64,000 nucleotides of DNA from Bremerella sp. P1. Lineage in GTDB: Bacteria; Planctomycetota; Planctomycetia; Pirellulales; Pirellulaceae. The DNA lies in the NCBI RefSeq assembly GCF_028748185.1, contig NZ_CP118164.1, positions 6,659,814 to 6,723,813 of the forward strand, in the 5' to 3' direction. This document shows, in pieces, positions 6,860-27,058 of the stretch. Position numbers and translations under genes: made by a program. Positions within the stretch are counted from its first letter, which is position 1; every line of letters begins with the position of its first letter. Below the pieces are notes generated by a model. The model made no database searches and was not told where the DNA came from. It saw nothing but the letters and a program-made list of their open reading frames with translations.

Positions 6860-6902
6860 GTAGGCCAGGCAGGACTTGAACCCGCGACCAAGGGATTATG
6901 AG
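6860..6902. repeat. attL-like repeat: 3' half of tRNA-CAU gene
   Basis: Identical over 43 bases to 27016-27058. It runs from the discriminator base through the T arm and variable loop to the anticodon and just beyond. It lacks the 5' half of the tRNA and so is not a functional tRNA gene. It is followed by a small hairpin (accctgg/ccagggt, 6944-6962) and by the arm-type repeats. Confidence 0.85.
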
Positions 6903-7008
6903 GACCTTCCTAGGGTTTTGCAGGTGCCTTTAGGACTTTGGAGACCCTGGTTTTTCCAGGGTTTCCGGTCCTGTAAGGGTCTACGCGAATCTGACGAAAG
7001 CCGCTTTT

Positions 7009-7051
7009 AGTTTGGTTCTGGTTTGGTAACGGTTTGGTTTTAGTTTGGTAA
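7009..7051 (+). repeat. Four phased GTTTGGT repeats, probable integrase arm sites
   Basis: Copies of (a/g)gtttggt(a/t) begin at 7009, 7020, 7031 and 7042, exactly 11 bases apart, all in the same orientation. Two more copies lie near the other end at 26937 and 26949. Spacing of one helical turn and position just inside the attachment repeats fit arm-type binding sites of a tyrosine recombinase. Confidence 0.6.
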
Positions 7052-7088
7052 TCAAGACTTGCCACACCAGCGGTCAAAGACGGCCAAG

Positions 7089-7643
7089 CTACGGCTTCTC
7101 TGTCCGTAGTTTCATGTCTCGTTCATGCATCTGAATTATGATTTCGGCTGACTTACTTGCCTCATCGCTTTCTACCCCGCTGTCACGCAACTTTTCATAG
7201 ACGAAATCCTTTGCCTTTTGACGTTCTTCCGCCTTTTTCTTTTGGTACGACCGTTCTTCCTGGCTTTGATATTCGTAGTTGATTTGTTTTTGCTGCCACG
7301 ATCCTTGATAGGAGATCAGGAGAGCGACAAGCATGACTAACGCTATCGAGCCGAAGCCACCAACGAGAATAACAATCAATGCGGCTTGATCGTCCGAAAC
7401 TCCAGACGTTTTCGACTCGCGATTTGGGTAATTAGATGTCCTGGGACGGTCCTTGGCTTCGGGTACCGGTGCCACCGCTCCTGATGCTGGCTCTTTCTTC
7501 TCCTCTTGAACTCTTTCTTTCTGCCTAGCAAGGTGTTGCCTTGCGGCCTCTGCCATCAACTCCTTGTTTTTCCTCATGGAGCTTCGTGAGCCACCCCATA
7601 CATCTGGCTCAGAATTTCGACTTCGATCACCAAAATTGGACAT
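7089..7643 (-). CDS. Hypothetical single-span membrane protein
   Basis: A protein of 184 residues with no recognised family. Residues 1-75 are polar, basic and proline-rich (likely disordered). One clear membrane helix lies at about 85-112 (ALIVILVGGFGSIALVMLVA). It is followed by a highly charged, glutamine- and lysine-rich segment that probably forms a coiled coil (about 120-150), then an acidic-basic tail. It is the first gene inside the left end of the element and is transcribed toward that end, divergently from the two-gene module at 7979. Base composition is more A+T-rich than in the flanking host genes, as expected of element DNA. Possible roles include membrane-linked exclusion or lysis control, but nothing in the sequence proves either. 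Confidence 0.6.
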   Translation of the reverse strand: MSNFGDRSRNSEPDVWGGSRSSMRKNKELMAEAARQHLARQKERVQEEKKEPASGAVAPVPEAKDRPRTSNYPNRESKTSGVSDDQAALIVILVGGFGSIALVMLVALLISYQGSWQQKQINYEYQSQEERSYQKKKAEERQKAKDFVYEKLRDSGVESDEASKSAEIIIQMHERDMKLRTEKP

Positions 7644-7842
7644 CTTTAGATTTGCCCTTGCCTAAGAAGCCTCCAAATACCCCCGCATGAGGGGGAACAC
7701 TTCGCAGATTGTAGCTGGAAGCTAGGGCTAATCAAATGGTGGCTCGATACAGTCGTGCACATTTCTCGATCAAACCTTAAGGGCCTAGTGATCCAATGAC
7801 CAAACGTGTACTCGAGATCGCTGAGAATTGGCATTTAATGAA

Positions 7843-7863
7843 AGTATCAATGAAATTGATACT
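7843..7863. promoter_or_regulatory. Perfect 9-bp palindrome upstream of the two-gene module
   Basis: Arms agtatcaat and attgatact separated by gaa. It sits in an A+T-rich 335-base gap between divergent genes, about 115 bases before the start at 7979. The form is that of a dimeric repressor operator. The regulator is unknown. Confidence 0.45.
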
Positions 7864-7978
7864 ACTTTTGAGCATATATAACTTGCTGATACTCAGAAGC
7901 TTGAAGCCTACCTCTTTGCGCGGGATACTAACCCCCTTCGCATTTTACCTAGAACTGGCAAGGCAACTCTGAACAGCT

Positions 7979-24814: not shown

Positions 24815-24850
24815 ATGCGCGTATACCAACGAAAATAATGCGGGGAGAAC

Positions 24851-25225
24851 TTACTCCGCGTCGGTTTCGGCCGCTCTCTTGCGAGACTGGCCACGGCTAG
24901 TTGCTGGCTGGTCTTTGGCGGTAGACATTGCATCCGCCCATTTCTTCGAATCAGACATTAGTGTCACGATTTCGATCCTGTCTTCGCGGCTATAACCGAT
25001 CAGAGGATGCTCCCGCGTTGGTCGCACGAAGCCGGCAAATCGCAATCTTTTTAGCGTGGATGGGCTAATTCCCAGCCAACGCGCGGTGTCGTTTTCGCTC
25101 AGAAAATTCGAGCAGTTCCCCGGATCGAGTAACGGCTGAATCTTTTGAAAAAGCCTCTCGGCGAGGACTTCGTAATCTTGATCTTCAAGCGTTACTTGAA
25201 TGGCTCCACTATCTGCCCGTGCCAT
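24851..25225 (-). CDS. Small HTH DNA-binding protein (excisionase/MerR-like)
   Basis: A protein of 124 residues. The central part, about 43-85 (LSENDTARWLGISPSTLKRL then FVRPTREHPLIGYSREDRIE), is a winged HTH of the excisionase/MerR-like type: helix-turn-helix followed by a basic wing and a Y-S-R-E-D end. The C-terminus is lysine- and arginine-rich and probably disordered. It heads the minus-strand gene set that continues with the initiator and helicase, about 116 bases downstream. Likely roles are excision directionality factor or early-gene regulator. It is not close enough to any named family for a symbol. Confidence 0.7.
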   Translation of the reverse strand: MARADSGAIQVTLEDQDYEVLAERLFQKIQPLLDPGNCSNFLSENDTARWLGISPSTLKRLRFAGFVRPTREHPLIGYSREDRIEIVTLMSDSKKWADAMSTAKDQPATSRGQSRKRAAETDAE

Positions 25226-25645
25226 GACTACTCCATTCTTGAATGTGAAATAGCTGGGCTACGGCCCGACTACGTTGCCCCAGCGAAAACTCATGTTTTT
25301 GATTCCGTGAAAGAAAGTATGGAACCGTCACGTCAAGTTTGACAACCCCTAAAATCAACTTTATTTTGATGCAACTGGTTTCTTTTCAATGACTTACGTG
25401 CTTGCCGATACAGTAAAAGCATGGCAAGCAAATTGGCGAGGACTGCCCAGTAGCCTCTCTCAAGTTTTTTCAGTGCATGCCGAAAATTTTTCGCCTGATG
25501 GTTTCGGTCAAAACACCCCAATTAGATGCTTGCTTCTTCCCTTAGAAGTCGCGAGAATGCGAACCCAACTATGTTTTCCCAAGAACTACTGTTATTTCCT
25601 GGGAAAACCAAACACTCCTTTTTCTACTCATGAAAGGAAGGAAGT
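25226..25645. promoter_or_regulatory. Control region between HTH gene and integrase, with inverted repeat
   Basis: A 420-base A+T-rich gap between divergent genes. It holds an inverted repeat gttttccca/tgggaaaac (25573-25581 and 25600-25608; 18-base spacer), ending 37 bases before the integrase ATG. A TTGACA at about 25339 lacks a good -10. The integrase has a strong ribosome-binding site (gaaggaag). This gap is the likely lysogeny or early control region, but no repressor gene is present. Confidence 0.45.
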
Positions 25646-26896
25646 ATGGCGAAGACATTTTCTGTTTGGATCGCAAGGCGATATCCAAACGGCCAATCGA
25701 AATCCGGCCGGACACGTTGGAAGACTGAAGCGGTCAAGTTTCAGAAGGAAGTCAACGAAGGCGACCGAGTGATGGTTTTTTGGAAGACTGCTGACGGGAA
25801 GACGGGCGAAAAAATGATGCCCTCACCTTATCGAGCGGGTTTCAAAGAAGCCGCCACGTATCGCGACAAGAAGACAACGGAGTTGGCAACGCTCCAAGAG
25901 GCTGTGCCTGAAGGCAAAACGGCCTGGAAAGCATTCCGAACGGAATTCGAGAAGGACAAACTTCAGGGAACGGGCTCCGAGCGTAAAGCTGATTTAACAG
26001 TCCGCGATTACAACTCACTGTTGAATCGGGTCGAGAGCATTCTCGCTCCTAAATGCGTCGAAGACCTCGACGACAAAGGAGTGGCCAATTTCCGCTCAAA
26101 GTTGATGTCCCAAAAGGCCAAGCAGGCTAAAGATGGAAAATTGAGCCCGGGCTCGATTGCGAAGAACATACGCTACTTAAAGGCCGTTCTTTCCTATGCA
26201 CGCCGCAAGGGCTATCGAGTTGCCAACCATGTTGAGTCTGTAAAGACATGGCCGAGCGATACTCGGTTCTTTCCCGATGAAGCACTGCGAAAGATTTTCG
26301 CCGTCATTGATTCGGCGCAACGTCCGGCATTGGATGCTCCCTATAGTTGCTCTGCATGGTGGGAAGGCTTCCTCTGGATTCAACGCAGCAACGGGCTGAG
26401 ACTTAGCGAGGCACTGAATCTGAAATGGGAAGACGTAAGCTTGGATCAAGCTACATTGCATATTCCGTTTCAGAAGAACGGGCAAGCAACGACTCTGCCT
26501 CTTAGCGAGCAAACTGTTTCTTACCTTCGAAAGCTAGTTGATCTCGGCGAGACTCACGTTTTTCCTACGGGCGGACTTCATGAAAAATCGCTCTACGAAG
26601 AATTTCATCGGCTACAAGCTTTGGCCGGGGTGCATCTTCGATGCCTCCTAGCAAGTCGGGATGCCGACCACGTTTGCACACCATCATGCTCGTTCTTTGG
26701 CTTTCACAGCCTTAGAAAAGCGTTTTGCTCGATAAACGCTCAGAATGGAATGCCGCTAGAGGTCCTGTGTGCGTTAGCAAGACACTCAAGCGTGAGTGTG
26801 ACGCAGAAGTACTACCTCGATGCCGAGGCCCTGAGACTGAATGCCGCAGGCACTCTCGCTGACCCTGTGTTTAACACTGAAGAACCAGCCGCCTAA
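25646..26896 (+). CDS. Tyrosine recombinase integrase of the element
   Basis: A protein of 416 residues. The N-terminal arm-binding region (1-90) is basic. The core-binding domain is at about 95-200 (LTVRDYNSLLNRVESIL, GSIAKNIRYLKAVLSYARRK) and the catalytic domain at about 205-400, with R252 (GLRLSEAL), H354 and R357 (HSLR), H380 (ARHSSVSVT) and the nucleophile Y389 (QKYY). All catalytic residues expected are present, so it looks active. It is transcribed toward the tRNA attachment site 120 bases away, as usual for tRNA-specific integrases. Closest in style to integrases of planctomycete islands and phages. Confidence 0.93.
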   Translation: MAKTFSVWIARRYPNGQSKSGRTRWKTEAVKFQKEVNEGDRVMVFWKTADGKTGEKMMPSPYRAGFKEAATYRDKKTTELATLQEAVPEGKTAWKAFRTEFEKDKLQGTGSERKADLTVRDYNSLLNRVESILAPKCVEDLDDKGVANFRSKLMSQKAKQAKDGKLSPGSIAKNIRYLKAVLSYARRKGYRVANHVESVKTWPSDTRFFPDEALRKIFAVIDSAQRPALDAPYSCSAWWEGFLWIQRSNGLRLSEALNLKWEDVSLDQATLHIPFQKNGQATTLPLSEQTVSYLRKLVDLGETHVFPTGGLHEKSLYEEFHRLQALAGVHLRCLLASRDADHVCTPSCSFFGFHSLRKAFCSINAQNGMPLEVLCALARHSSVSVTQKYYLDAEALRLNAAGTLADPVFNTEEPAA

Positions 26897-26936
26897 GCTC
26901 TGGATTTTCAACGGAGTCAAACTCAACGCCGATTTT

Positions 26937-26958
26937 AGTTTGGTAATAGGTTTGGTTC
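26937..26958 (+). repeat. Two GTTTGGT arm-type repeats at the right end
   Basis: Copies agtttggtaa at 26937 and ggtttggttc at 26949, in the same orientation as the four copies at 7009-7051. The whole string ttttagtttggtaat is shared between the two ends. Confidence 0.55.
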
Positions 26959-27015
26959 TTGAGACAACCTAATCTGCAAATCGCTCTAAATGCCTACTAC
27001 ATCTAAAGTAAAAGA

Positions 27016-27058
27016 GTAGGCCAGGCAGGACTTGAACCCGCGACCAAGGGATTATGAG
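27016..27058. repeat. attR-like repeat within the tRNA gene
   Basis: The second copy of the 43 bp attachment repeat. Here it forms the 3' half of the intact tRNA, which remains functional after integration. Recombination with 6860-6902 would release a circle of about 20.2 kb. Confidence 0.85.

What the first reader, a model, noticed from the sequence alone, without database searches (positions are those of the whole stretch)
6860..27058. 20 kb element bounded by a 43 bp repeat of the 3' half of a tRNA
Bases 6860-6902 and 27016-27058 are identical for 43 bases. The right copy is the 3' half of a complete CAU tRNA and the left copy is an orphan half, with an intact tyrosine integrase (R252, H354, R357, H380, Y389) 120 bases inside the right end. 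This fixes both ends of an integrated element. Seen directly; that integrases leave such marks is established.
Basis: partly seen in the sequence, partly recalled or inferred. Interest (0 to 1): 0.8.

Follow-up and report, generated by a model that had tools for sequence, protein, structure and literature searches.

The report
Satellite-like island carrying swapped-in cargo
A 20 kb piece of mobile DNA has inserted itself into a tRNA gene of a planctomycete bacterium; it looks like a small phage-like island whose virus-shell genes were replaced by about 12 kb of ordinary-looking bacterial genes.

Summary
Bases 6860-6902 and 27016-27058 are identical for exactly 43 bases, the longest exact direct repeat in the window (14-18 in 20 dinucleotide shuffles) and the only two perfect matches to those 43 bases found in the 6.96 Mb genome. 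The right copy is the 3' half of an intact CAU tRNA; the left is an orphan half.

The interpretation (an island integrated by its own tyrosine integrase) is supported. A congener (G007) carries a 14.46 kb island at the same tRNA with a 67% identical integrase, its own orphan half, and ends similar to both ends of this island, including arm-type repeats at the same 11 and 12 base spacing.

New here: the G007 island has terminase, capsid, portal and MuF genes where the window has 9919-21660, eight genes of host-like composition; only the last third of MuF (9573-9881, 82%) survives beside them. So the island looks like a capsid-carrying, satellite-sized element whose packaging/capsid module was replaced by cargo. 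Related 13.7-14.2 kb att-bounded islands occur in two other genera. Helper-dependent transfer is inferred, not shown. The integration is of a known kind; the capsid-for-cargo swap is the interesting part.

The parts
6860..6902 (-). left attachment site: orphan 3' half of the CAU tRNA (displaced native end)
   Evidence: first 12 trailer bases resemble uninterrupted tRNAs in G001/G005
6903..7060 (+). left att arm: four GTTTGGT at exact 11-base steps (7010, 7021, 7032, 7043)
   Evidence: in 100 dinucleotide shuffles of the window never more than 2 within 45 bases; 74% over 170 bases (repeat included) to the left end of the G007 island
7089..7643 (-). 184 aa; only very weak matches (Rz-like spanin, E 0.005), unreliable
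7979..8983 (+). 334 aa phage-associated protein of unknown function (phrog_3482)
   Evidence: E 9.5e-50; no PADLOC, NCBIfam or PDB match
8980..9534 (+). 184 aa protein, overlaps the previous gene, no family match
9573..9881 (-). C-terminal third of a MuF head-morphogenesis protein; truncated at the cargo junction
   Evidence: PF04233, phrog_2468, 82% to the last third of the 297-aa G007 protein; DNA similarity stops at about 9880
9919..13182 (-). cargo: Ser/Thr protein kinase with TPR repeats, 1087 aa
   Evidence: PF00069 E 1.5e-37
13179..13820 (-). cargo: ECF sigma factor
   Evidence: PF07638 E 1.2e-56; TIGR02999 above cut-off
14016..15128 (+). cargo: 370 aa acidic, probably exported protein (signal-like start, own reading)
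   Evidence: no Pfam; 59% to a protein in G371
15242..16273 (+). cargo: choloylglycine-hydrolase-family amidase
   Evidence: PF02275 E 1e-46; PDB relatives; best of 59 relatives 46%
16321..17679 (+). cargo: serine hydrolase of the beta-lactamase fold
   Evidence: PF00144; 84% to Microbulbifer donghaiensis; in 59 relatives only weak matches, top-scoring 26%
17753..18703 (+). cargo: cation diffusion facilitator
   Evidence: PF01545; 74% / 70% in G026 / G125
18830..20083 (+). cargo: BBP2 beta-barrel porin
   Evidence: PF07642 E 3.8e-65; 57% in G012
20080..21660 (-). cargo: 526 aa, probably exported (own reading), no Pfam; relative lies near the BBP2 relative in G012
21927..22472 (+). 181 aa protein with Cys pairs, GC3 0.53 like the phage part
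   Evidence: no Pfam, PADLOC or NCBIfam match
22546..23883 (-). DnaB-like replicative helicase
   Evidence: PF03796, phrog_19 E 2.5e-85
23880..24734 (-). replication initiator, O-like / DnaD-like loader
   Evidence: phrog_391 E 5.9e-40; 39% over 205 aa in the G007 island
24851..25225 (-). excisionase-like regulator
   Evidence: phrog_66 E 6e-4, weak; 48% over 100 aa in the G007 island
25646..26896 (+). tyrosine integrase, 416 aa, catalytic residues present
   Evidence: 67% in G007
26937..26957 (+). right att arm: two GTTTGGT 12 bases apart (26938, 26950)
   Evidence: same spacing of GGTTTGG in the G007 island
27016..27058 (-). right attachment site: element-borne 3' half that rebuilds the tRNA
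27016..27090 (-). intact CAU tRNA

Best explanation
A 20,156-base integrative island entered the anticodon-loop site of a CAU tRNA gene through its own tyrosine integrase; the 3' half brought by the element rebuilt the tRNA at the right end and the native 3' half was left as the orphan at 6860-6902 (boundaries well supported). The island belongs to a lineage of small capsid-carrying islands of Pirellulales, seen in G007 in the same tRNA. In this copy the module between the replication genes and the end of MuF (in G007: terminase, capsid, tape measure, portal, most of MuF) is absent, and eight host-like genes (9919-21660) sit in its place (shown by gene order, a truncated MuF and composition). 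Integrase, excisionase-like regulator, replication genes and both att sites remain, so it probably still excises and replicates, and if it moves between cells a helper phage must supply the particle (inferred).
For: Ends. Related island in the same tRNA: integrase 67%, regulator 48%, O-like 39%, MuF end 82%, capsid module identified. Gene order, read from the integrase: window Int-Xis-O-DnaB-[cargo]-MuF end-att; G007 Int-Xis-O-[TerL-MCP-196 aa-TMP-portal-MuF]-att. Composition: nine phage-like genes GC3 0.52 pooled, eight cargo genes 0.65, ten flanking host genes 0.67; G+C of the phage-like stretches 0.48-0.51 (the MuF end, 0.59, excepted), of the cargo genes 0.53-0.57. No match at E <= 1e-10 to the G007 portal or capsid in this genome. 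Compact islands in other genera: G064, exact 46-base repeat with tRNA-Phe, 14.21 kb; G133, 95% over 60 bases at tRNA-Gln, 13.69 kb, both with TerL-MCP-~170 aa-portal. A siphovirus-type prophage, a possible helper, lies in the same genome.
Against: No excision, induction or particle has been seen. The swap may have happened after integration, leaving a stranded relic. Only one close relative of the integrase (G007) was found; at E 1e-30 there were 5 of 396 order genomes, this one included. MuF end, regulator and initiator similarities are to one congener. The G007 island has no match to the window's DnaB. The G007 and G008 islands carry a tape-measure gene, unusual for capsid satellites as I know them (recalled), so they might be decayed prophages. 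The MuF end has host-like GC3 (0.62). The trailer argument rests on 12 T-rich bases. G006 has a distant ECF-kinase pair beside this tRNA. Three of the other portal genomes (G163, G276, G184) showed no boundary repeats in the stretch fetched.
Confidence: 0.65

Rival explanations
1. A decayed prophage: an ordinary temperate phage lost its structural genes and a chance chromosomal rearrangement put 12 kb of host DNA inside it. It is fixed in place.
For: Truncated MuF at the junction; cargo has host composition; no transposase or second recombinase domain in the island ORFs scanned and no direct repeat of 14 or more bases pairing the two cargo edges (shorter ones would be missed).
Against: Integrase, regulator, helicase and initiator are open and the att arms are present, which random decay would not be expected to spare; the closest island (G007) is itself only 14.46 kb, and of its 13 ORFs of at least 80 aa the 9 scanned show one tail gene (tape measure) and no lysis gene.
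Confidence: 0.25
2. Two neighbouring islands or a composite: the cargo is a separate genomic island that inserted into the phage-like island or shares its tRNA site.
For: This tRNA is a hot spot: an integrase lies next to its 3' end in 5 of 8 genus genomes with a full-length tRNA match and G007 holds two islands in tandem.
Against: No third copy of the tRNA end in the window, no second integrase among the island ORFs scanned, no long direct repeat pairing the cargo edges.
Confidence: 0.08
3. The 43-base repeat is a chance or assembly duplication and 6903-27015 is ordinary chromosome.
For: None found.
Against: Length far beyond shuffles, matching ends in G007, low-G+C phage-like genes at both ends.
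Confidence: 0.02

Closest known systems
tRNA-targeting genomic islands as defined by Islander (PMC4383910, passages read)
   Same: Regenerated tRNA plus displaced 3' fragment in the same orientation, integrase inside, anticodon-centred crossover (2083 of 3919 Islander islands are of that type, 3760 of 3919 with a 3' fragment).
   Different: Nothing that I could see at the level of integration.
Capsid-forming PICIs (cf-PICI; described in PMC10690885 and PMC10803314, passages read)
   Same: The relatives G007, G064 and G133 carry integrase plus terminase, capsid and portal in 13.7-14.5 kb; the mean size given for cf-PICIs is 14 kb.
   Different: The window element has lost that module; G007/G008 have a tape-measure gene; no helper shown; sequence relation to cf-PICIs not tested.
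Tycheposons / VEIMEs (marine; named in passages of PMC11389934, PMC10803314 and PMC10187409; details recalled)
   Same: tRNA site, tyrosine recombinase, replication gene, ecological cargo (recalled features).
   Different: Different phylum; integrase relation not tested.
G007 island (G007:C5, L078:2978-17483)
   Same: Same tRNA, related integrase, regulator, initiator, MuF end and both att arms.
   Different: Keeps terminase, capsid, tape measure, portal and full MuF plus a GajA/AriA-like ATPase; none of the window's cargo.

Membership tests
tRNA-integrated genomic island | intact tRNA and cognate end fragment bracketing the island, same orientation, 3' fragment downstream of the tRNA | tested here: met
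tRNA-integrated genomic island | tyrosine integrase inside, length 2-200 kb, fragment not inside a conserved protein domain | tested here: met
   the sulfatase ends at 6819, before the fragment
tRNA-integrated genomic island | excision and circular form | not testable with these tools
   needs PCR or reads
capsid-forming satellite (cf-PICI-like) | own terminase, major capsid and portal | tested here: not met
   window element has only the MuF end; met in the G007 island
capsid-forming satellite (cf-PICI-like) | no own tail, helper-supplied tail | tested here: inconclusive
   no tail or lysis family in the 16 scanned proteins inside the G064 and G133 islands (16 of 31 ORFs of at least 80 aa); tape-measure gene in G007/G008; helper dependence not testable
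complete prophage | packaging, capsid, tail and lysis modules | tested here: not met
   the own-genome prophage near C1:6.30-6.32 Mb shows that PHROGs recognises packaging, capsid and tail genes in this genome
integrative conjugative / mobilizable element | relaxase or conjugation genes | tested here: not met
   no such Pfam domain in the 19 island ORFs, nor in 21927-22472
tycheposon | membership of its integrase clade | not tested
   no tree made

The most novel reading that the evidence does not exclude
Planctomycetota harbour their own lineage of capsid-carrying phage satellites (TerL-MCP-connector-portal-MuF, 13.7-14.5 kb, in tRNA genes), and this window shows one that traded its whole capsid and packaging module for 12 kb of host-type genes while keeping integration and replication, so that it must now ride in another element's particle, perhaps that of the siphovirus-type prophage in the same chromosome.
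Probability: 0.35. Interest if true: 0.65.

Novelty: new variant of a known kind. Interest (0 to 1): 0.45.

Why it matters
If right, it catches a switch from a capsid-making satellite to a cargo-carrying island, with a relative in the before-state (G007) in the same tRNA of a species of the same genus. It would also put phage satellites into a phylum for which one full-text search (planctomycet + 'phage satellite' + capsid) returned no paper, and would suggest how blocks of host-like genes gain mobility. The cargo hydrolase, 84% identical to a Microbulbifer protein, shows that genes shared with distant phyla end up in such islands.

Tried and rejected
Chance repeat: rejected. Cargo as old local chromosome of the genus: no counterpart of the cargo in the 7 congener stretches of 19.9 kb around this tRNA except the distant G006 pair (that comparison dropped hits covering under half of the shorter protein and did not print ORFs under 80 aa without hits). 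In the 8 congeners the amidase has at best 46%, the serine hydrolase 23-27% over part of its length where it matches at all, the 526-aa gene no match. DNA search of 9540-22000 in 241 family genomes: 72 with a match, the window's own included; only the top two candidates per genome were scored and not all genomes were listed; the listed matches outside this genome are of about 1 kb or less and none spans the block. Separate ends for the cargo: no direct repeat of 14 or more bases pairs its edges. Conjugative element: no domains. Defence role of 7979-9534: no PADLOC hit; the kinase matches PADLOC kinase models, but so, I expect, would most Ser/Thr kinases, so I gave it no weight. Viral contigs: integrase and phrog_3482 protein gave no relative, MuF one distant locus. 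Phage records: integrase at most about 26% over 55% of its length in the 12 of 14 records listed. Literature searches; of the listed papers I saw titles and abstract starts, and none was recognisable from these as describing this element; passages were read in PMC10187409, PMC4383910, PMC11389934, PMC10690885 and PMC10803314. Structure prediction was not used: no deep alignment for the unknown proteins.
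Full report
The repeat. Window bases 6860-6902 and 27016-27058 are identical over 43 bases and differ directly outside. Twenty mononucleotide and twenty dinucleotide shuffles of the window gave longest exact repeats of 14-16 and 14-18. In the complete genome (one contig) only these two of the 8 matches found are perfect over the 43 bases. The right copy is the 3' half of the only tRNA found in the window. Joining 6902 to 27059 in a script gives one complete tRNA by ARAGORN, letter for letter the present one.

Which copy is native. The orphan's trailer (sense strand, first 12 bases) agrees with uninterrupted tRNAs of G001 in 10 of 12 and G005 in 11 of 12; the right-hand trailer agrees with each in 8 of 12. 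Over 30 bases the difference vanishes (orphan 14 and 13, right 13 and 13). With G003, G004, G006 and G008 the orphan's first 12 agree in 3-5. The right-hand trailer resembles that of the G007 island, 23 of 30. This fits the usual rule that the element brings the 3' half which rebuilds the gene, but it is modest evidence, because the stretch is short and T-rich. On the other side, 27059-29000 is syntenic with G004 (74% over 1765 bases) and G006 (78% over 1360 bases).

An independent island with the same ends. G007 carries an integrase 67% identical, beside the same tRNA, and an orphan half 14,463 bases away. Nucleotide similarity links both outer ends: 74% over 170 bases at the left end, repeat included, and one 68% alignment of 1193 columns from the integrase through the right end into the tRNA. 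Both islands carry TTTGG-type direct repeats spaced 11 bases in the left arm and 12 in the right (window GTTTGGT x4 and x2; G007 GGTTTGG x2 and x2). Four GTTTGGT within 45 bases was not approached in 100 dinucleotide shuffles (maximum 2). I read these as integrase arm sites (inference). G008 has a 45-base orphan 17.36 kb from the same tRNA with another integrase (24%) and no such repeats. Of 8 genus genomes with a full-length match to the tRNA, this one included, 5 have an integrase gene next to its 3' end (G000, G003, G004, G007, G008); in G001, G005 and G006 none was recognised (the first G001 gene was not scanned); G002 (68% complete) has no full-length match.

What is inside. Reading from the integrase: integrase, excisionase-like regulator, O/DnaD-like initiator and DnaB helicase, an unknown 181-aa gene, then eight genes 9919-21660, then a 102-aa MuF end, two overlapping unknown genes, a 184-aa gene, and the left att site. 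The 102 aa match the last third of the 297-aa G007 MuF at 82%, and DNA similarity stops at about 9880, close to 40 bases before the end of the kinase gene. In G007 the corresponding stretch holds terminase, major head protein, a 196-aa protein, tape measure, portal and full MuF. So the capsid and packaging module is missing here and the eight genes occupy its place.

The cargo. Kinase-TPR and ECF sigma factor, a 370-aa acidic protein, a choloylglycine-hydrolase-type amidase, a beta-lactamase-fold hydrolase, a cation diffusion facilitator, a BBP2 porin and a 526-aa protein. GC3 is 0.65 for the cargo, 0.67 for ten flanking host genes and 0.52 for nine phage-like genes; the MuF end (0.62) is an exception. 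The searches covered 60 genomes, the own one included, so 59 relatives: amidase matches in 23 of 59, best 46%; 526-aa gene in 10 of 59, best 39%, none of the 8 congeners; hydrolase in 19 of 59, all weak, top-scoring 26%. In named genomes the hydrolase is 84% and 83% identical to two Microbulbifer species and 77% and 75% to Sedimentitalea and Stappia; within the flanks held (at most 10 kb a side) these do not hold the rest of the cargo, though two have a 41-44% cation-efflux gene. The cation-efflux gene is 74% and 70% identical in G026 and G125; the BBP2 (57%) and 526-aa (35%) relatives lie within 6 kb of each other in G012. The cargo therefore looks like a mosaic, without a single donor in what was searched.

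The lineage. The G007 portal finds matches in 7 of 396 order genomes and the G007 capsid protein in 10 of 296, each count including G007. Of the six other portal genomes, G163, G064, G133 and G184 show the order TerL-MCP-about 170 aa-portal; G276 has TerL, the small protein, portal and MuF with an opposite-strand ORF called where the capsid match lies; G040 is more diverged and its contig is short. G064 has an exact 46-base repeat of the tRNA-Phe 3' half 14,210 bases apart and G133 a 60-base repeat (95%) at the 5' half of tRNA-Gln 13,693 bases apart; G163, G276 and G184 showed no such boundary repeats in the stretch fetched, and G040 was not tested. Of 20 proteins scanned in L164 and L165, 16 lie wholly inside the two islands (of 31 ORFs of at least 80 aa there); none matched a tail or lysis family. 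The terminase and portal genes there, and the G133 capsid gene, are named from BLAST to G007, not from a family scan of my own (a PF04860 search did find both portals). The size equals the cf-PICI mean of 14 kb given in PMC10803314 (passage). Against a simple satellite reading, the G007 and G008 islands carry a tape-measure gene (9 of 13 and 10 of 22 listed ORFs scanned).

A possible helper. The genome has one PF04860 portal match, at C1:6313845-6314840, in a low-G+C stretch (about 6.298-6.324 Mb; its ends were not mapped) with integrase, terminase, portal, protease, capsid, head-tail adaptor, head closure, major tail protein, tail chaperone and tape measure. Its tape measure is 36-37% identical to those of the G008 and G007 islands over 288 and 201 aa. 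That it helps the window island is conjecture.

Verdict. Boundaries and integrative nature: about 0.97 likely. Replacement of a capsid module by cargo: about 0.8. Origin from a satellite rather than a decayed phage: about 0.65. Present mobility with a helper: about 0.35.

Noticed in passing
L078:11451-13364 (G007) and L079:10963-12198 (G008): Compact islands in the same tRNA carry a tape-measure gene, but no other tail gene was recognised among the proteins scanned (9 of 13 and 10 of 22 ORFs); it resembles part of the tape measure of the G000 prophage (36-37%). A satellite-borne tape measure could set the length of borrowed tails.
   Followed up: partly
L164:3297-17552 and L165:102-13854: Two further att-bounded 13.7-14.2 kb islands with TerL-MCP-portal in tRNA-Phe and tRNA-Gln of other Pirellulales genera.
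   Followed up: partly
L146:9461-9892 (G003): A 64-aa ORF with 92% identity over 63 aa to the G007 MuF lies about 150 bases from a tRNA-Leu, an apparent relic of a related island at another tRNA.
   Followed up: no
L078:17434-18879 (G007) and L081:7571-9022 (G003): A second integrase, 98% identical in the two genomes, sits at the same tRNA or its orphan half: tandem islands in G007.
   Followed up: partly
L183/L184 (G000:C1 about 6.298-6.324 Mb): Low-G+C siphovirus-type prophage of about 26 kb (ends not mapped) with six tRNAs next to its left edge.
   Followed up: partly
window 16321-17679: Serine hydrolase 84% identical (81% in DNA) to Microbulbifer: looks like transfer between phyla.
   Followed up: partly
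L083:10329-10898, L078:2551-2847, L153:3795-4979: Sequences related to the G133 integrase lie on the 5' side of the same CAU tRNA, so the tRNA may be targeted from both ends.
   Followed up: no
L078:15565-17292 (G007): ATPase related to AriA/GajA defence models in the accessory slot of the G007 island; the window has 7979-9534 in that slot.
   Followed up: no
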